A stretch of DNA of 64,000 nt. Source: Ignavibacteriales bacterium (GTDB lineage Bacteria; Bacteroidota; Ignavibacteria; Ignavibacteriales; SURF-24). Both the position numbers and the translations under genes were made by a program. Position 1 is the stretch's first letter; each line of letters opens with the position of its first letter. Under the pieces are notes generated by a model. The model made no database searches, was not told where the DNA came from, and was given only the letters and a program-made list of their open reading frames with translations. The stretch covers positions 1-64,000 of the forward strand of contig JAPLFH010000056.1 in the NCBI GenBank assembly GCA_026390815.1, given 5' to 3'. Positions 12,058 to 20,660 of this stretch are shown here, piece after piece.

Positions 12058-12084
12058 TAAGAGGGACTTCCATAGTCCCTCTTA
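12058..12084 (-). terminator. Rho-independent terminator of the cytochrome cluster
   Basis: An 11-bp perfect stem TAAGAGGGACT / AGTCCCTCTTA with a 5-base loop lies 22 bases past the stop of the last cytochrome gene (12106). On the minus strand it is followed by AAATTTTTC. Confidence 0.8.
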
Positions 12085-12105: not shown

Positions 12106-13293
12106 TTATTTCCGTAATTCCACAATGGAAGATTTAAGCAACTCGACAGCATAATGAGTATTATGTGATCCTTTACTTTTATCATGTTCAACAAACAAGA
12201 AATTAAATAAAGCACCTGCTCTGGATGCCGGGCGGATTTTAAGTGCATTACTTCCACTACCGGCATTGATTGTAATACTACCGTCTGTAGCAGAAACAAC
12301 TATCCACGGGTTCTTTGCACCAACATTCCATTTGTTAACTACATTTACATCAAGCAATAAAGTTTGCAATGTATCCAGATATGCTTCTATTGCCGTGTGA
12401 CTTCCAAGTCCATTGGTTAATGTTGAGGATGCACCAATATAATCAACTTTAAAACCAGCAGCATGACAACCTGAGGTTGTACAACCTGTTGTTAGAGATA
12501 CAGGTTGATGCGAAGTATTGTCATAGCTTATATTCATTGTATGACCACCTGCTATTCCGGAACCTGCGGTAGCATCTGCCATATGGCAAGAAATACAGCC
12601 TTCTTGTTTAATTGTTGTATTATCAGTGTGATTGGAATTTCCTGTATAAGTATAATCAGCAAATTGGAATCCACCTTTTCCCATCAGCATTTGTCCCTGA
12701 ACTCCGTAATGAGGATACCATCTATTGTTGTTGATGGTAATTGTATCGGTTAATGCAGTTTTGGTTGGATCTGGTTTAGGACTTATTGTGCGTGGTTTAT
12801 GGCATTGAACACAAAGATTACCTTTACCATAATTAAAAGAATAATCTGCCATACCTTGAATTGGAGAAGTAATAGTAACTGCATTGATAGTGCGTAGTGC
12901 AAAATTACCATTAGCATGCGGTGAATGACATGCAAAACATCCTGGCGGCGAGGCATCTACATGATTAGTAACTGTTTTACCTTGCATTTCCTGGATAAAA
13001 CCTTCGGTTGTATGGCATCCTGCACATGTTGAACTGTTACGTTCAAAATCTCCACCAACAAAATGTTTAGATAACTGCCATTGATATCTTTTAGCCCAGA
13101 CGTAGTAGGTTGTATCCTGGTCAGGGTCATGGCAGTCGCCACATTTAATCCCTTCCTTGAATCCTTCCAGGTTAAGTAAAGTTGTATCACCCGCTGGACC
13201 TGTTGGACCCGCAGGACCTTTACATCCATCAAAGGAAATTATTAAAAATCCTCCGATTACCAGAAGACAAAAAAAGATATTTTTTTTTCTCAC
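12106..13293 (-). CDS. Multiheme c-type cytochrome lipoprotein with collagen-like linker
   Basis: 395 residues. A hydrophobic leader ends at FDGC (Cys24), giving a probable but slightly atypical lipobox. Directly after it comes a Gly-X-Y stretch (KGPAGPTGPAG) resembling a short collagen-like linker. Heme motifs: CGDCH, CAGCH, CFACH, CVQCH, CISCH, and one CX4CH (CTTSGCH), so five canonical sites plus one possible. The last about 100 residues carry no heme motif. It is the last gene of the porin-cytochrome cluster; a surface or outer-membrane-anchored electron acceptor is the natural inference. Confidence 0.85.
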   Translation of the reverse strand: MRKKNIFFCLLVIGGFLIISFDGCKGPAGPTGPAGDTTLLNLEGFKEGIKCGDCHDPDQDTTYYVWAKRYQWQLSKHFVGGDFERNSSTCAGCHTTEGFIQEMQGKTVTNHVDASPPGCFACHSPHANGNFALRTINAVTITSPIQGMADYSFNYGKGNLCVQCHKPRTISPKPDPTKTALTDTITINNNRWYPHYGVQGQMLMGKGGFQFADYTYTGNSNHTDNTTIKQEGCISCHMADATAGSGIAGGHTMNISYDNTSHQPVSLTTGCTTSGCHAAGFKVDYIGASSTLTNGLGSHTAIEAYLDTLQTLLLDVNVVNKWNVGAKNPWIVVSATDGSITINAGSGSNALKIRPASRAGALFNFLFVEHDKSKGSHNTHYAVELLKSSIVELRK

Positions 13294-13349
13294 ATATCCC
13301 TCCTTTTTCTTTTTTAAGAACTATAAATTGATTATACCAAAATCCCTCT

Positions 13350-14225
13350 TTAATAATCTATATCCTTACCAAATAAATTTAGTTTACCATCAATATGTTT
13401 TGATGAATTTATGAATTGTAAATTTGCATTCACAACATCTCCGTGGCATGCAGAACAAGTAAGTACATTTACGTGTGTTCCACCTTCCGCCTGAGTTTTG
13501 GGTAATGCTTTTTCAGCAATCGTTGTTTTTGTAGGATCACCATGACAAGTTCCACATGCTGCCGAGGATGGATTTGTCCATACAGGTGCATTCTGTGTGT
13601 TACCATTTTTAAATGTACCATGACAATAAGTATTAGTGCAGCCCGCAGTTGTAAAATTGTACTGTGGATTTGGTTCAAATAGTGGAAGTTGAGAATCATA
13701 TTCTGAAGTTGATGGTTTATTCGTTATAATATTTGCAAAAAAACTATTGAACATCACTTCGGCTTTACCATCATCAATATGACCTGCTTGATAAACACTT
13801 ACAGGAACATTATGGCATTCTGAACAGGAAAGAGTTTTTCCTTTTGAATTACCTTCAAGATGAACTTTATGCGCACCAACTCCACGTTCTGTAATTGCAG
13901 TGTTTCCATTAAGATCACGGCTATCTTCATGGCAAGTTGCACAGTTTTCTGGTCCTGCGGGTTGGTTATGACAAGTAAGACAAGAAGCTTTAGATAAGCC
14001 TCCATCGTACATTATTCCATGACATTGCTGGCATCGTTTCATATCCCAATTGCTGCTTTTAATAAATGTCCCATGAAAATCAGGATTTCCAGCTTTAGCA
14101 AATCCCGCACTATGAACTGCAACACCGGAAAAGGAAGTTGGGATGTTTTCTTTTATATCTGCACAGGATAGGAAAAGCAATCCAAACAAGAAAAATGAAA
14201 TTATATATTTTACTTTTTTTTCCAT
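13350..14225 (-). CDS. Multiheme c-type cytochrome lipoprotein (CXXCH and CX4CH motifs)
   Basis: Start taken at ATG 14223-14225, 13 bases after the upstream stop. The resulting leader MEKKVKYIISFFLFGLLFLSC ends in a convincing lipobox (Cys21), whereas the longer frame from 14270 would bury it. Heme motifs: CQQCH, CLTCH, CATCH, CSECH, CGTCH, CSACH, plus CTNTYCH (CX4CH): six canonical and one extended. Mixed CX4CH/CXXCH proteins are known among outer-surface cytochromes of metal-reducing Geobacter-type bacteria. The neighbours (porin, 14-heme cytochrome) suggest an outer-membrane cytochrome of the same conduit. Confidence 0.87.
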   Translation of the reverse strand: MEKKVKYIISFFLFGLLFLSCADIKENIPTSFSGVAVHSAGFAKAGNPDFHGTFIKSSNWDMKRCQQCHGIMYDGGLSKASCLTCHNQPAGPENCATCHEDSRDLNGNTAITERGVGAHKVHLEGNSKGKTLSCSECHNVPVSVYQAGHIDDGKAEVMFNSFFANIITNKPSTSEYDSQLPLFEPNPQYNFTTAGCTNTYCHGTFKNGNTQNAPVWTNPSSAACGTCHGDPTKTTIAEKALPKTQAEGGTHVNVLTCSACHGDVVNANLQFINSSKHIDGKLNLFGKDIDY

Positions 14226-14238
14226 ATCAAACTCGCTG

Positions 14239-15444
14239 TTAATCTCTTTTTGAACTGTGGCAATAACCACAAAATCCTACACCAGGACTGTTGGTAGAAA
14301 TATGACAATTAAAACAGAGTGAATTACTATCGTTGTGCCAATCGCCTTGTTCGTCTCGCATAAATCCATTTGGATGCGTTTTAGGATTTGTACCTTTTAT
14401 TCCATCGCTATCAAAATGACAGGTTATGCAGGCAGGATCACCACCCTGAGTATCGTGGCAGGAGGCGCATCTTTCAATATCTCTTTTTGCTTCAGTAGCA
14501 TGCTGTCCGCCACCGCTACCAACACCTATGATCATAAAATCTTTAGCTTTATGCGAAGTAGGCATAACTCCTGCAATAGCGTAATCACCACCGCTTAAAT
14601 TATGACATTCAGCGCAAAACGTTTCTGCCTGGTGGCATGTTTGGCATTCACTTTCTTTTCCTTTCAAATCTATACCGTGAGTATAAGTAAAGTTCAGATC
14701 GTGTACGCGAGTAATTTTTTGCTGCTTTGTACCATCAACAAAATTATGAGGTGAATAAGGTGCATAAAAATCTTTTGCTGTATTTTTTTCAGTCAACATA
14801 TTTGTACCAACGTGGCAGCCAGCGCAGGAATTATTATCGTGGCACATTGCGCAGTTTGCATCATTTGCTTCAGCAGCAAATTTGTGTGTCTTTTTATAAT
14901 TGCTTGTCTGGTGATTCTGCGGGATCAAATTAGCTGTAGATAAATGACAAGCTTCGCATTCGTTAGTTGCAATTCCTTGTTCATTATTATGGCACTGGTA
15001 ACAGGTTTCCATTTGCGGCATTGCCTTTACCGCTTTAAAACTATAATCAACTTCTTTCAAACCAGTGTGGCAGATTTCGCATTCCATCTTTTTTTCGTTT
15101 ATGTGAAAACTGTGATTGAAAATCATTTGAGATTTAGTTTGATTTAACGGCTCGAATTTATTATCGAAGTGGCAAGTGTTGCATGTTTTTTCATCCTGAA
15201 CGTCGTGGCATTGTGAACACTCTGTGTGGTCAGGAAGCAATCTGTCGTTCAATGATTTACTATCGGAAACTTTAGAATGACAACCCTTGCAATCTGTGGC
15301 TTCACTATGTACTGCGTGAGAAAACTTTATGATCTTTTCATTTCCATTTCCAGGATTTACATCTTCGCCGGAAGCAAACGCACTGAATGTTATGAATCCT
15401 GCAACGGAAAATATTATGATTAAATAAAAATATTTTAGTTTCAT
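14239..15444 (-). CDS. Periplasmic 14-heme c-type cytochrome
   Basis: 401 residues with a cleavable Sec signal peptide (MKLKYFYLIIIFSVAGFITF) and no lipobox. Fourteen CXXCH motifs are seen in order: CKGCH, CSQCH, CNTCH, CEICH, CYQCH, CEACH, CAMCH, CAGCH, CQTCH, CAECH, CASCH, CITCH, CFNCH, CGYCH. Heme density is about one per 28 residues, like periplasmic MtrA/OmaB-type cytochromes that plug into an outer-membrane porin. The gene starts just after the porin gene (stop at 15446, start at 15444) and so is almost certainly co-translated with it. Alternative view: a cytochrome of the nitrite or sulfur cycle, but no CX2CK or other catalytic heme motif is visible. Confidence 0.92.
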   Translation of the reverse strand: MKLKYFYLIIIFSVAGFITFSAFASGEDVNPGNGNEKIIKFSHAVHSEATDCKGCHSKVSDSKSLNDRLLPDHTECSQCHDVQDEKTCNTCHFDNKFEPLNQTKSQMIFNHSFHINEKKMECEICHTGLKEVDYSFKAVKAMPQMETCYQCHNNEQGIATNECEACHLSTANLIPQNHQTSNYKKTHKFAAEANDANCAMCHDNNSCAGCHVGTNMLTEKNTAKDFYAPYSPHNFVDGTKQQKITRVHDLNFTYTHGIDLKGKESECQTCHQAETFCAECHNLSGGDYAIAGVMPTSHKAKDFMIIGVGSGGGQHATEAKRDIERCASCHDTQGGDPACITCHFDSDGIKGTNPKTHPNGFMRDEQGDWHNDSNSLCFNCHISTNSPGVGFCGYCHSSKRD

Positions 15445-15445
15445 A

Positions 15446-16723
15446 TTAAATCAGGTTTAAGTTTGTGTTGAACCAATAATTTAGTTTAAGGAAGAACCTA
15501 AAATCATTCTTGTAAATTTTATTGTTCAGGTATTGCCCCTGAATATCGAATGACAAGACTCGCCATGGTCTTACGTTCACATTGCCAAGTATTGTTACTA
15601 AATCATTTCTAGGATCAGCTTCAGTAAGTTTGTAAGTTGTAAAAGTAACACCGGCAGAAGGAGTAACTAATCCATCAAAAAATGTATTTGCTGCATAAAG
15701 AGAAACTGCATCAAGTTCGCCGGCATATCCAAATGTTTTTCTGTAGCTGATATTTCCATAAGGTGAATTTACACCTACAGTAACTCGTTCAGAATTATCA
15801 TCCTTGTATTTAACATATCCGAATTTTCCGAGTACGGTGTAAGCACCAAGCTTGTAATCCAATCCAGTTTCAATTTCCTGCGAATTACCATAATCGAAAA
15901 CTGAAAATATAGAATTGTATCTTACTCGTGGCTCTCTGTAATTATAATAAACATCAACGCCTAAATCTTTAACTCCCATATACCTGCCGTTAAATTCAAC
16001 TTTAGAAGTTTTGGTAAGATTAAAATCAAAATCGTAACGTGTATCTATATTAAAAAAGTTTTTCGATTCATAAGAAACTTCAGCCGATGCAAATTTATAT
16101 TGATTTGATTTGCTTTGAACAAGCACAGAAATTGGATTTAAATTTTCATCCAACCGCGTTGCCCAGTAATCGTAAATTCGGAAATTTTTATTTACGTAGC
16201 TTAACCCTATCTTCCAATTTTCAAATGCATTGATTGTAAATTTTCCACCGTAAATATAATCATCCTTCCATTTCTTAGTCAGCTCAAGCTTTTGATAAGC
16301 CGGCACATTACCGCCATAATACCCGGTAATTTTATAATCACTATATCGCAAATCGGCAGTAATTCCATCAAACACACCTCCTGCAACACTGTTGAACAAT
16401 GGCTGCCTGCCAAGTTTAATTGTGGCAACATCAAAAAGTTTTCTTGTTTCTAAATAAAGATTGTAAAATCGAAGTCGTGGATCATTATCCACATTTTTAG
16501 AAAGATCACCTTCAAGTGTAAAGTAGGATCTTAAAGAAAAGAAATCTTTATTCACATTCAGGTTAAGTGTTTGATAAGAGCGGAGGTAAGTGTTAGAAAC
16601 GTCAGCCGATTCAAACCGTTCAAACGAATAAATTGAAGATGAAAATCTTCCATTAATAGTTTGAGCGAAGTTAAACAAGGGCAAGCAAAATATAAGAATC
16701 AAATAGTAAAATTTTTTATTCAT
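15446..16723 (-). CDS. Outer-membrane beta-barrel protein of the cytochrome cluster (porin candidate)
   Basis: 425 residues with a signal peptide (MNKKFYYLILIFCLPLFNFA). The rest alternates hydrophobic and polar residues in strands rich in Tyr, Phe and Asn (ATIKLGRQPLFNSVAGGVFD, DLGVDVYYNYREPRVRYN, NDFRFFLKLNYWFNTNLN), as in transmembrane beta-barrels. It sits between a tetraheme and a 14-heme cytochrome gene and is tightly coupled to the latter. That position is the one held by the MtrB/OmbB porin in porin-cytochrome complexes. It is shorter than MtrB, and homology to MtrB cannot be claimed from sequence reading. A general alginate-export-like porin is the alternative. Confidence 0.8.
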   Translation of the reverse strand: MNKKFYYLILIFCLPLFNFAQTINGRFSSSIYSFERFESADVSNTYLRSYQTLNLNVNKDFFSLRSYFTLEGDLSKNVDNDPRLRFYNLYLETRKLFDVATIKLGRQPLFNSVAGGVFDGITADLRYSDYKITGYYGGNVPAYQKLELTKKWKDDYIYGGKFTINAFENWKIGLSYVNKNFRIYDYWATRLDENLNPISVLVQSKSNQYKFASAEVSYESKNFFNIDTRYDFDFNLTKTSKVEFNGRYMGVKDLGVDVYYNYREPRVRYNSIFSVFDYGNSQEIETGLDYKLGAYTVLGKFGYVKYKDDNSERVTVGVNSPYGNISYRKTFGYAGELDAVSLYAANTFFDGLVTPSAGVTFTTYKLTEADPRNDLVTILGNVNVRPWRVLSFDIQGQYLNNKIYKNDFRFFLKLNYWFNTNLNLI

Positions 16724-16792
16724 CTGCAGCCTGCTTTAATTTTAAAAATATTAGCTATCAAATATTTAAAAACTTTATAACCAAAAGATGAA

Positions 16793-16843
16793 GGATACTT
16801 GTTTCTGAATATTAATTTTTTAAAAACCCAGCAACAAGTATCC
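16793..16843. repeat. 15-bp imperfect inverted repeat between porin and c554-type genes
   Basis: GGATACTTGTTTCTG (16793-16807) and CAGCAACAAGTATCC (16829-16843) are complementary at 14 of 15 positions around a 21-base AT-rich centre. It lies between co-directional genes (16723 and 16887). There is no T run right after the stem, so it could be an attenuating hairpin or part of a dispersed repeat. Confidence 0.6.
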
Positions 16844-16886
16844 AGTATCAGAAAAACTAATACTCAACTAAATCGTTCTAAACTCA

Positions 16887-17447
16887 TCAGCCTTTAGGCA
16901 TCGAATGAGCAATCTTTCCCCAGGCTTCCTCATACTTGAAAGATTTAAAAGTTGGACTTTCTGAGTTATGGCAGCCGGTACAAAATTTTTCTTTTTCTTT
17001 ATGAATAACCAAACCTTTGGAAATTGCTTGATCTCGATTTTTCATTATACTCATTTGTTGATACTCCGAACCTGGACCATGACAAGTTTCGCATTGAACA
17101 CCATCTTCAACTTTAAACTTTGCAGTTTTAAGAGCGGCATCAACATCATAACCACTAGCGTGGCACTTTAGACAGGCTTTTGTTTCAACTGCTTTGGTTT
17201 TAAATCCTTTTGCTTTGGCTATATCATCAGCTTTTTGCGTTTGTAAAGCTTTATAAGCGTTGGCATGTTTACTTCCCTGCCAGATGGTAAATTGCTTACC
17301 TGCCTTGTCAGACTTATGACACATACCGCATTTTTCAGCACCAACAAATCCGGATTTTTTATCTTCCTTAAAAGAATTAATTGAAGTGAAACCGAATGTT
17401 AGAGAAACAATAATAAGAAGTGAACAGAATTTTATTAAGTTGGTCAT
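16887..17447 (-). CDS. Tetraheme cytochrome c554-type protein
   Basis: Four heme motifs: CGMCH, CLKCH, CETCH, CTGCH. The pattern (V)GAEKCGMCHKSD, KACLKCHASGYD, VQCETCHGPGSEY and FCTGCHNSESP is that of the cytochrome c554/c-prime family, small periplasmic electron carriers first known as partners of hydroxylamine oxidoreductase. Start chosen at ATG 17445-17447, because AAAGGAGG precedes it by 5 bases and the signal peptide (MTNLIKFCSLLIIVSLTFGF) follows. The longer frame to 17504 reads through this ribosome site. It sits between the membrane cytochrome b/c fusion and the porin, so a shuttle between inner and outer membrane modules is a good inference. Confidence 0.9.
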   Translation of the reverse strand: MTNLIKFCSLLIIVSLTFGFTSINSFKEDKKSGFVGAEKCGMCHKSDKAGKQFTIWQGSKHANAYKALQTQKADDIAKAKGFKTKAVETKACLKCHASGYDVDAALKTAKFKVEDGVQCETCHGPGSEYQQMSIMKNRDQAISKGLVIHKEKEKFCTGCHNSESPTFKSFKYEEAWGKIAHSMPKG

Positions 17448-17548
17448 TTTTCCTCCTTTATGATAAATATTATATTGCCCTACAGATTTATTTACCAGAT
17501 GCAATATAAAATAATTTTATTAATTAAAACAAGATATTTTTAAGCGCT

Positions 17549-20203
17549 TTATTCCGCATTATTATTTTTGATTCCTGCATCAGCACTATTTTTTGCAGAA
17601 TCATTATTAAAAGTATTTTCAATTTCTTTAATTTTTTCCAATTCTAATGGATGCTCATGCTTCATTTCTTCTTCGGATAAAACTCCGGTAATTAAAGCAG
17701 TATTCAAAGGATATACTTCCGGGTTAAAAATAACAAAGTAAAAGTGCCAGACAATTATAGATAAAGTTGCCAGCCATGCTTCATAAAGATGAACTAAAGT
17801 AGCCGCATCTAAAAATATTTTTGGTGCAATTGAAAGAAAAATAGTATTAAAGAAAAGCATCAAGCCTGTTGCTGACATAACTATTACACCCCAAATCAAA
17901 GCCCAGTACTCAGCTTTTTCCATATAGCTGAATCTTCCAAACAATGGTTTTACTTTGCTTATACCTAAAAGGTATTTAACATTTGTGATTACATCTTTAA
18001 GATCCTGTAAGTTTGGAAGGAAATCAAAAAGCATTTGTCTTCCTCTCTTCGTAAAAAATAAATAGTAAGAATGATAAAATGAGATGGTAATCATAAAAAT
18101 TCCAAATGATCTATGCAGGAAACTCCTGGTTTGAAACGCCCATTCGCCAAGTATCCATTTAAACGGAATTACCCACCAGGCATCCGGGTATTTTAAAGCG
18201 AAGCCGGTAACCACTAATGCAATAAAACTTGTTAGCATAATAAAATGCTGGATACGTTCATTAAGCGTCATCCTCAAATAGTATTTGCCTTGTTCCTTTA
18301 ACTCTTTTAATTCCCTGGCATGTTTCTTTTTCTCTTTACGCTTTCTAATAAAATCAAGAATATTATGAATTAACATTCCAGAAATTACCAGGAGAATTAA
18401 TACAATGTAAATTCTGGTAATCCAGTAAAGAAGCGGGGATTCAGCTTTAGATCCTGTAAGATGAACTTGTTTAAAATCTGCTGTAATGCTTGCACCCGGA
18501 TGGCATCTTCCACAAGTTTTAGAAAGATTATTATCATTTATACTTGAGGTTGAATCGGAGCTCGGTTTTATTTTATGCGCTCCGTGACAGCTTGAACAAT
18601 CAGCCGCATATTTGGAACCACCACGAACGGCTAAACCATGGTAACTTTCATTATAAGAACTTGCTTTTGTTGTAGGAACGCCATACTTACTAATCATTTC
18701 AACATCACCATGGCAGGAACTGCAAAGTAGAACTACATTTTTTCCCGAGGCAACTTTACTTTTCGGGTTATCCTTTGCAAATATTTGATGATTGCCATGG
18801 CAATCTATACACGTGGGGGCATCCATCACGCCTTTCTTTACAGCTTGTGCATGAATGCTCTCCATATAATCAGAAGCAATACCAGGATGGCAATTTGCTC
18901 CATCACCGCAGGTATTGGCAATATTTTCTCTTTTAATTCTTGAGGAAGCATTTTTTGTTGTTTGCATTTTATGCGCGCCATGGCAGTCGGAGCAGGTGGC
19001 GGCATTTTCATTACCAGCTTTTAGTGCTTGAAAATGAACTGAATTTTCGTAACCCAATATTTCATTTTTAGATTTTCCGGTAAGCTTTATTACTTCGATG
19101 TTGTTGACATGGCAGGTAAAGCATACTTTATGTTCATTCAATTTACTCAATGGGGATTTATCAACTGATTCAATATTATGCTCACCGTGGCAATCAGTAC
19201 AGCTTGGCGCTAAGTTAGCACCGGAAAAAAAAGAAACACCATGGGAAGATTTTTTGTAATCAGCTAAAATATTTGAATGACATTTACCACAAGTATTGGG
19301 AATATTAAATTTTGAAATCTTACTTTTTGCTGCATCTGTACCTAATACCATATGGTTATCATGGCAATCAACACAGGTTGCCGCTTCTTTGCCATCTACT
19401 CCAATTCTGCCATGGATGCTTGTCTGATAATTTTTAACAAATTCTACTAAATTAATTTTACCAGCTTTTTCAAAATTATTTTTATCAAGATGACATTTTA
19501 AACATGAACGAGAGGAAATAGAATATTTATTATTGAATACTTCATGAGCACCATGGCAATTAACACAACCGGGTGTATTGTTTTTCTTTGCTAATTTATG
19601 TACACTTGTTGCAAACTCATCATCACTTTTTTTGTGGCATGATGCACAAAGTTTTTCCTCTTCAACTTTGGTAAATTTAACCGATTTAATTTCATGCGCA
19701 GATTTGTTATGGCAATCAGTACAATTAGGTGCTTTTTTACCTTTTAAAAATCCGGCATGATGTGTACTTTTTGAATAGGATCTTACAGACGGAGATTTAT
19801 GACAGCTTACACAAAACACAACTTCGTTTTTTGAAAAATCTTTAGCTGGCTTAATTTCATGTTTTGAGTGACATGCAAAACATTCAACTTTTTTTTCTCC
19901 ATGAATGCTTTTGGAAAATGATGGACTATCATGACACTGAGCGCAATCAACCCTGGAAATATCATTGCCTTCTTTATGAGGAATATTTTCTGAATTGAAA
20001 CCGGAGTGACAATCTGTACATTCTAAACCAGCATGAACTGAATTATTAAAATGATCTTTATCTACAAAAAGGGAAATTTGTTTTCCGTTTCTTTCAATCG
20101 TTAAAGTATTATCACTATGGCAATCAATACAAGCAGTCTTTGTTGTTTGCGCCATAATTAGCGAGCTCAAACAAATAAAAACTACAGCAGAAATAAATTT
20201 CAT
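17549..20203 (-). CDS. Multiheme c-type cytochrome fused to a membrane cytochrome b domain (CbcL-like layout)
   Basis: 884 residues. A signal peptide (MKFISAVVFICLSSLIMAQ) is followed by about 570 residues with eighteen CXXCH motifs (first CIDCH, last CGRCH) and one CX5CH (CGDGANCH). From about residue 595 come several membrane spans (YWITRIYIVLILLVISGMLI, HFIMLTSFIALVVTGFAL, AEYWALIWGVIVMSATGLML, LATLSIIVWHFYFVIF) with histidines placed as in hydrogenase/formate-dehydrogenase-type cytochrome b. Members of this layout, such as CbcL of Geobacter, take electrons from menaquinol and pass them to periplasmic cytochromes. The heme count here is about twice that reported for CbcL. It follows the Rrf2 gene by 15 bases and leads the cytochrome cluster. 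Confidence 0.92.
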   Translation of the reverse strand: MKFISAVVFICLSSLIMAQTTKTACIDCHSDNTLTIERNGKQISLFVDKDHFNNSVHAGLECTDCHSGFNSENIPHKEGNDISRVDCAQCHDSPSFSKSIHGEKKVECFACHSKHEIKPAKDFSKNEVVFCVSCHKSPSVRSYSKSTHHAGFLKGKKAPNCTDCHNKSAHEIKSVKFTKVEEEKLCASCHKKSDDEFATSVHKLAKKNNTPGCVNCHGAHEVFNNKYSISSRSCLKCHLDKNNFEKAGKINLVEFVKNYQTSIHGRIGVDGKEAATCVDCHDNHMVLGTDAAKSKISKFNIPNTCGKCHSNILADYKKSSHGVSFFSGANLAPSCTDCHGEHNIESVDKSPLSKLNEHKVCFTCHVNNIEVIKLTGKSKNEILGYENSVHFQALKAGNENAATCSDCHGAHKMQTTKNASSRIKRENIANTCGDGANCHPGIASDYMESIHAQAVKKGVMDAPTCIDCHGNHQIFAKDNPKSKVASGKNVVLLCSSCHGDVEMISKYGVPTTKASSYNESYHGLAVRGGSKYAADCSSCHGAHKIKPSSDSTSSINDNNLSKTCGRCHPGASITADFKQVHLTGSKAESPLLYWITRIYIVLILLVISGMLIHNILDFIRKRKEKKKHARELKELKEQGKYYLRMTLNERIQHFIMLTSFIALVVTGFALKYPDAWWVIPFKWILGEWAFQTRSFLHRSFGIFMITISFYHSYYLFFTKRGRQMLFDFLPNLQDLKDVITNVKYLLGISKVKPLFGRFSYMEKAEYWALIWGVIVMSATGLMLFFNTIFLSIAPKIFLDAATLVHLYEAWLATLSIIVWHFYFVIFNPEVYPLNTALITGVLSEEEMKHEHPLELEKIKEIENTFNNDSAKNSADAGIKNNNAE

Positions 20204-20218
20204 AAATCTCCGGAAATA

Positions 20219-20647
20219 TTACTTATTCTTCTGTAACGTTTCAGCATACTTTTTTGCTACTTCTTCAACCGTTTTACTTGATATCAAATTATAAATTCGA
20301 TCTCTTACCTGCGCCCACTCTTCGTGCAATGGACAAGGATTTTCTTCGGAACATTCTTTTAATCCAGTTACGCACTTTTGATTAATAATTGGTCCCTCAA
20401 CTCTTTCAACAATTTGTAGTATGGAGCTTTTCTTTGCCAAATTGGTTATTTTGAATCCACCACCTCTGCCTTTAAATGAATCGACATATCCATACTTCGC
20501 CATCCGTTGCAATATTTTTGCAAGATAGTGAGTTGGAATTTCTTCACTTTTAGCAATTGCCGCAGACATAGTCAAAGAATCTTTTGGCTGTCTGGCTAAA
20601 AATAAAACAGCACGGATTGCATATTCACCTGTTTTTGTATAGATCAT
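20219..20647 (-). CDS. Rrf2-family transcriptional regulator with three-cysteine cluster motif
   Basis: 142 residues. The winged-helix start MIYTKTGEYAIRAVLFLARQ, the recognition region IPTHYLAKILQRMAKYGYVD and the wing SFKGRGGGFKI are typical of Rrf2 proteins (IscR, NsrR, RsrR). Cys residues in KCVTGLKECSEENPCPLHEEW are spaced C-x6-C-x5-C, close to the C-x5-C-x5-C iron-sulfur site of IscR/NsrR, so Fe-S-based sensing of NO, oxygen or redox state is likely. It is the first gene of the cytochrome run and probably controls it. Two palindromes just upstream are candidate operators. The start codon at 20647 is supported by TGAGG about 8 bases before it. Confidence 0.92.
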   Translation of the reverse strand: MIYTKTGEYAIRAVLFLARQPKDSLTMSAAIAKSEEIPTHYLAKILQRMAKYGYVDSFKGRGGGFKITNLAKKSSILQIVERVEGPIINQKCVTGLKECSEENPCPLHEEWAQVRDRIYNLISSKTVEEVAKKYAETLQKNK

Positions 20648-20660
20648 GATTTCTGCCTCA

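What the first reader, a model, noticed from the sequence alone, without database searches (positions are those of the whole stretch)
12106..20648. Complete quinol-to-surface electron conduit in one gene run
In one direction the run encodes a sensor-type Rrf2 regulator, an inner-membrane cytochrome b fused to up to 19 c hemes, a soluble tetraheme shuttle, an outer-membrane barrel, a 14-heme periplasmic cytochrome joined to the barrel gene with no gap, and two multiheme lipoproteins. These are all parts of a porin-cytochrome pathway for extracellular electron transfer, with about 48 heme motifs in all (47 to 50 depending on the extended ones). Such sets are well studied in Shewanella and Geobacter. 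In this lineage the composition (small barrel, c554-type shuttle, CbcL-like entry protein of double heme count, collagen-like lipoprotein) looks different from those.
Basis: partly seen in the sequence, partly recalled or inferred. Interest (0 to 1): 0.8.

Follow-up and report, generated by a model that had tools for sequence, protein, structure and literature searches.

The report
Ignavibacterial porin-cytochrome electron conduit operon
Seven adjacent genes appear to encode a protein wire that carries respiratory electrons from the inner membrane through an outer-membrane barrel to the cell surface; it is a well-conserved but already described kind of system, seen here with its membrane entry protein and regulator attached.

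Summary
Window 12106-20647 (minus strand) encodes Rrf2, an 18/19-heme c-cytochrome fused to a b-type cytochrome, a c554-type tetraheme protein, a heme-free barrel, a 14-heme cytochrome one base after it, and two multiheme lipoproteins: 47 CxxCH plus 3 extended motifs, each supported by relatives. AlphaFold2 gives a plug-less barrel of 22-24 strands (pLDDT 76). The barrel occurs in 185 and the 14-heme protein in 180 of 294 genomes of the class, the second set inside the first as I read the tables. All 30 loci fetched with the barrel search keep the order c554-barrel-14-heme; the pair recurs in KSB1, Zixibacteria and, remotely, a further phylum. This is a porin-cytochrome (Pcc) conduit. Shi et al. 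2014 described the Ignavibacterium album counterpart (IALB_1837-1840, with a 400-aa, 14-heme protein), and CbcL homologues with 3-23 hemes were published in 2018, so the type is known. Added here: the barrel/14-heme/lipoprotein core is constant, while the inner-membrane entry module is exchanged between lineages and the lipoprotein's heme number varies from 4 to 28. Outward flow to extracellular acceptors is likeliest; sequence does not show direction or substrate.

The parts
20219..20647 (-). Rrf2-family regulator with Cys92, Cys99, Cys105 (putative Fe-S sensor), first gene of the operon
   Evidence: PF02082 E 1.4e-30, TIGR00738; same position in L005, L006, L007, L067
20738..20743 (-). TTGACA element upstream of Rrf2, conserved in the window and four relatives aligned; putative promoter
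   Evidence: inference as to function
17549..20203 (-). CbcL-type inner-membrane protein: N-terminal 18 CxxCH + 1 CX5CH, C-terminal b-type cytochrome with about 5 transmembrane helices
   Evidence: PF01292 E 2.1e-13 and c7/c3 domains; His 581, 653, 697, 805, 820 invariant in 20 homologues; 19th motif aligned to CxxCH
16887..17447 (-). c554-type tetraheme cytochrome, putative periplasmic shuttle (start re-placed from 17504)
   Evidence: PF13435 E 1e-18; PDB 1bvb cytochrome c554 E 4.6e-7; 4 CxxCH
15446..16723 (-). heme-free outer-membrane beta-barrel, 22-24 strands, no plug
   Evidence: AlphaFold2 pLDDT 76.4, pTM 0.66; no Pfam/NCBIfam family above cut-off; match in 185/294 class genomes
14239..15444 (-). 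14-heme cytochrome, putative wire inside the barrel
   Evidence: 14 CxxCH; PF14522 E 5.6e-15; profile hits 3ov0 at E 3.4e-24; 180/294 class genomes
13350..14225 (-). multiheme lipoprotein 1 (6 CxxCH + 1 CX4CH), putative surface cytochrome (start re-placed from 14270)
   Evidence: TIGR01904 E 7.1e-12; lipobox-like Cys with acidic residues after it, conserved in relatives
12106..13293 (-). multiheme lipoprotein 2 (5 CxxCH + 1 CX4CH) with short Gly-X-X stretch after the lipobox; accessory surface cytochrome
   Evidence: homologues only in L074 and L080 among the neighbourhoods read
12058..12084 (-). 11-pair stem followed by a T run: putative terminator ending the operon

Best explanation
An operon for a porin-cytochrome (Pcc) extracellular electron transfer pathway. 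The CbcL-type protein oxidises menaquinol at its b-type cytochrome and passes electrons along its periplasmic heme arm. The tetraheme c554-type protein carries them across the periplasm. The 14-heme protein, seated in the wide barrel, takes them through the outer membrane to the multiheme lipoproteins on the surface, which reduce an extracellular acceptor such as Fe(III) or Mn(IV) oxides, humics, an electrode or a partner cell. Rrf2 probably switches the operon in response to redox state, oxygen or iron. Shown: gene content, heme motifs, conserved order and co-occurrence, barrel prediction. Inferred: assembly into one complex, surface position, direction, acceptor and regulation.
For: Domains and heme counts. 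Barrel, 14-heme and c554-type genes in the same order in 30 of 30 loci fetched with the barrel search. Barrel in 185 and 14-heme protein in 180 of 294 class genomes, the latter nested in the former as read from the tables. Barrel beside a 10-14-heme homologue in KSB1 and Zixibacteria genomes wherever the stretch read is long enough, and beside a 13-heme one at three marginal hits in a further phylum. Barrel of 22-24 strands without plug; the highest query TM-scores listed, about 0.5, go to chaperone-usher pores. Invariant membrane histidines in the entry protein. The genome also encodes an ImcH-like protein (3 N-terminal helices by hydropathy, NapC/NirT domain, 6+1 hemes). Published: I. album and Melioribacter roseus carry Pcc clusters (PMC4245776, PMC6137239), and M. 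roseus reduces Fe(III) (cited in PMC6137239).
Against: No complex was modelled: the 14-heme model failed (pLDDT 40). The barrel matches no named family and MtrB_PioB is absent. Foldseek matches of the barrel are weak and generic. There are no expression or growth data for this organism. CbcL-type proteins occur in both Fe(III) reducers and Fe(II) oxidisers (PMC6295460).
Confidence: 0.82

Rival explanations
1. The same conduit runs inward: electrons from Fe(II), an electrode or a partner cell enter through the lipoproteins and reduce quinone at the CbcL-type protein.
For: CbcL/MtrH/MtoC homologues occur in Fe(II) oxidisers too and sequence does not tell direction (PMC6295460). The genome has a cytochrome oxidase and alternative complex III-like cluster.
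Against: The characterised relative M. roseus is an Fe(III) reducer (PMC6137239); an ImcH-like protein, so far tied only to quinol oxidation, is present.
Confidence: 0.12
2. The cluster serves periplasmic nitrogen-oxide metabolism: the c554-type and Rrf2 (NsrR-like) proteins act on nitrite, hydroxylamine or NO.
For: Cytochrome c554 of Nitrosomonas is the closest solved relative of the shuttle; weak matches to NrfB/NrfH families.
Against: No catalytic nitrite or hydroxylamine enzyme in the run; barrel, 14-heme wire and lipoproteins would have no role; an octaheme tetrathionate-reductase-family cytochrome (TIGR04315) lies elsewhere.
Confidence: 0.04
3. The barrel is a solute porin that happens to lie beside cytochrome genes.
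For: No family assignment; generic porin matches by fold.
Against: Barrel and 14-heme gene stay adjacent across phyla and co-occur genome by genome.
Confidence: 0.02

Closest known systems
Ignavibacterium album IALB_1837-1840 Pcc cluster (Shi et al. 2014, PMC4245776)
   Same: Porin-like protein (1839), 400-aa 14-heme periplasmic cytochrome (1838), outer-membrane cytochrome with atypical heme motifs (1837), further periplasmic cytochrome (1840)
   Different: No CbcL-type or Rrf2 gene is mentioned for that cluster in the passages read; compared by published description, not by sequence
Geobacter sulfurreducens ombB-omaB-omcB and extABCD conduits (PMC6148476)
   Same: Barrel + periplasmic multiheme cytochrome + lipoprotein cytochromes in one cluster; a regulator gene (TetR family) precedes omcC's set
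   Different: 8- or 12-heme periplasmic proteins; the I. album proteins fell outside the named Pcc groups in Shi et al.; no quinol-side entry protein listed in those clusters
CbcL/MtrH/MtoC quinol oxidoreductases (PMC6295460)
   Same: N-terminal multiheme domain, C-terminal HydC/FdnI-like cytochrome b with conserved His
   Different: 18-19 hemes against 9 in Geobacter CbcL; published range is 3-23
Shewanella MtrCAB
   Same: Works alike: cytochrome inside a barrel with a surface partner
   Different: Barrel not of the MtrB_PioB family; 14 rather than 10 hemes in the wire

Membership tests
Porin-cytochrome (Pcc) conduit | outer-membrane integral beta-barrel gene in the cluster | tested here: met
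   (22-24 strands)
Porin-cytochrome (Pcc) conduit | adjacent periplasmic multiheme c-cytochrome | tested here: met
   14 CxxCH, one base from the barrel gene; conserved
Porin-cytochrome (Pcc) conduit | outer-membrane lipoprotein with redox cofactors | tested here: met
   two lipobox-bearing multiheme proteins; surface position not testable
Porin-cytochrome (Pcc) conduit | the proteins form a complex that conducts across the outer membrane | not testable with these tools
   14-heme model failed; complex not modelled
MtrCAB / MtrB_PioB | barrel of Pfam PF11854 | tested here: not met
   no match for 14 barrels nor in the whole genome
CbcL/MtrH/MtoC | N-terminal CX2CH repeats and C-terminal cytochrome b with conserved membrane histidines | tested here: met
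   direct alignment with Geobacter CbcL not done
Cytochrome c554 | Pfam PF13435, tetraheme | tested here: met
   68.5 bits against cut-off 20.8; 4 CxxCH
Rrf2 | PF02082 with three Cys ligands | tested here: met
   C92, C99, C105 read from the translation; cluster binding not tested

The most novel reading that the evidence does not exclude
Ignavibacteria and relatives share one constant trans-outer-membrane unit (barrel, 11-14-heme wire, lipoprotein) that is plugged into exchangeable quinol-side modules (Rrf2 + 19-heme CbcL type; 19-heme protein + cytochrome b + 16-18-heme CbcL type; 11-heme CbcL type; sets with a multi-pass and an ImcH-like protein) and exchangeable surface lipoproteins of 4 to 28 hemes, which would tune one conduit to different redox potentials.
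Probability: 0.5. Interest if true: 0.5.

Novelty: new member of a known kind. Interest (0 to 1): 0.33.

Why it matters
It shows that extracellular respiration machinery is a near-standard feature of this window's order and common in its class, gives a gene-level map of the full route from quinol to surface, and points to a barrel family without a Pfam or NCBIfam model that a new model could make searchable.

Tried and rejected
Structure of the 14-heme protein: a six-sequence alignment gave pLDDT 40, unusable. Only loci of the search for related loci and the DNA search may be handed to the predictor, so the richer genome search set was not used for it. Family assignment of the barrel by Pfam, NCBIfam and PDB sequence gave nothing. 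MtrB relationship tested and rejected. A search for an operator palindrome before Rrf2 failed on strand input and was not pursued. Direct sequence comparison with named Geobacter or I. album proteins was not possible, since those records cannot be fetched by name.

Full report
Observation. The seven genes lie on the minus strand between 20647 and 12106. Heme motifs number 18, 4, 14, 6 and 5 in the five cytochromes, against at most about 0.1 expected in shuffled proteins. Three extended motifs are backed by relatives: the CX5CH of the entry protein falls where shorter homologues have CxxCH, and the two CX4CH motifs of the lipoproteins are kept in 15 of 15 and 3 of 3 sequences aligned. The total of 50 is therefore the better count. 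The run is followed by a strong terminator-like stem at 12084-12058 and begins behind yigZ and uvrA.

Identity of the parts. Pfam and NCBIfam give Rrf2, a cytochrome b561-type domain (Ni_hydr_CYTB) fused to c7/c3-type multiheme domains, Cytochrome_C554, and c7-type multiheme cytochromes. Five histidines in or near the membrane part of the entry protein are invariant in 20 homologues from several phyla. The 14-heme profile finds PDB 3ov0, a multiheme cytochrome c family protein, at 3.4e-24 over its first 140 positions.

The barrel. No family model matches it, no solved structure matches by sequence, and MtrB_PioB is missing from the genome. AlphaFold2 on seven sequences gives a barrel of 22 to 24 strands with no plug (pLDDT 76.4, pTM 0.66). 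Fold matches are generic; the highest query TM-scores listed, about 0.5, are to the chaperone-usher pores FimD and PapC, and smaller porins score lower. That agrees with a wide lumen but does not prove a cytochrome inside.

Linkage. The barrel is found in 185 of 294 genomes of the class, the 14-heme protein in 180. Reading the two tables, the genomes with the 14-heme protein all have the barrel; the five with the barrel alone (G025, G060, G095, G126, G144) are mostly incomplete or fragmented. In all 30 loci fetched, the window's own among them, the order c554-type, barrel, 14-heme is kept. In KSB1 and Zixibacteria genomes reached through the entry protein the barrel lies beside a homologue of the 14-heme protein (one locus, L102, ends before it). 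In a further phylum three marginal barrel hits each lie beside a 13-heme frame that matches the 14-heme profile at 1e-34 or better.

Modules. Neighbourhoods show barrel, 14-heme protein and lipoprotein 1 as the constant part. The entry side changes: Rrf2 plus 18/19-heme CbcL type in the window and L005, L006, L007, L067, with genes of yigZ and uvrA size conserved beside it; 19-heme protein plus cytochrome b plus 16-18-heme CbcL type in L008, L071, L073, L077; 11-heme CbcL type in L078; no adjacent entry gene in L074, L075, L076, L086; 11-heme proteins with a multi-pass protein in L080, L082, L083; multi-pass proteins of nuoLMN-like size before the cluster in L079 and L081 (identity not tested). 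Lipoprotein 1 ranges from 4 hemes (L012) to 28 (L072). Lipoprotein 2 has homologues only in L074 and L080 of those read.

The rest of the genome. The barrel, the entry protein and the 14-heme protein are single copy (the second hit of the last lies in a cluster that looks like alternative complex III). Elsewhere lie an ImcH-like protein, an octaheme tetrathionate-reductase-family cytochrome, an oxidase cluster, a second c554-type protein and a pair of 20- and 43-heme cytochromes.

Known or new. Shi et al. 2014 (PMC4245776) reported the I. album cluster with the 14-heme, 400-residue periplasmic protein, then the largest of its kind, and placed it apart from the other Pcc groups. Later papers report Pcc clusters in M. 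roseus, hot-spring Ignavibacteriales and bioanode Ignavibacteria (PMC6137239, PMC7399161). CbcL homologues with 3 to 23 hemes are known in 15 phyla (PMC6295460). The finding is therefore a member of a known kind. The combination with a 19-heme entry protein and Rrf2 in one operon, and the module exchange, were not seen in the papers searched, which is a limited library.

Verdict. Assembly, direction and acceptor remain inferences.

Noticed in passing
G000:C7, locus L112:6787-11609: A 526-aa cytochrome with 20 CxxCH overlapping a 1088-aa cytochrome with 43 CxxCH, behind a flavin/ferredoxin-type oxidoreductase gene and before a 541-aa protein of no family; possibly a second extracellular electron route.
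   Followed up: partly
G000:C31, locus L116:1982-3484: ImcH-like protein: N-terminal helices, NapC/NirT domain, 6 CxxCH + 1 extended motif, so both Geobacter-type quinol oxidase families seem present in this genome.
   Followed up: partly
L079, L081: The conduit core lies directly beside three multi-pass genes of nuoL/M/N-like size in distant members of the class; identity not tested.
   Followed up: no
L072:4981-7602; L069:132-1892; L071:11862-13355: Lipoprotein 1 homologues expanded to 28, 15+2 and 10+5 heme motifs while barrel and 14-heme partner stay the same size.
   Followed up: partly
window 13350-14225 and relatives: Conserved acidic residues soon after the lipid-bearing Cys of lipoprotein 1, resembling the surface-export signal of Bacteroidota lipoproteins (resemblance from memory).
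   Followed up: no
G000:C25, locus L113:3554-5125: Octaheme tetrathionate-reductase-family cytochrome (TIGR04315, 580 bits) next to a cytochrome b561-type gene.
   Followed up: no
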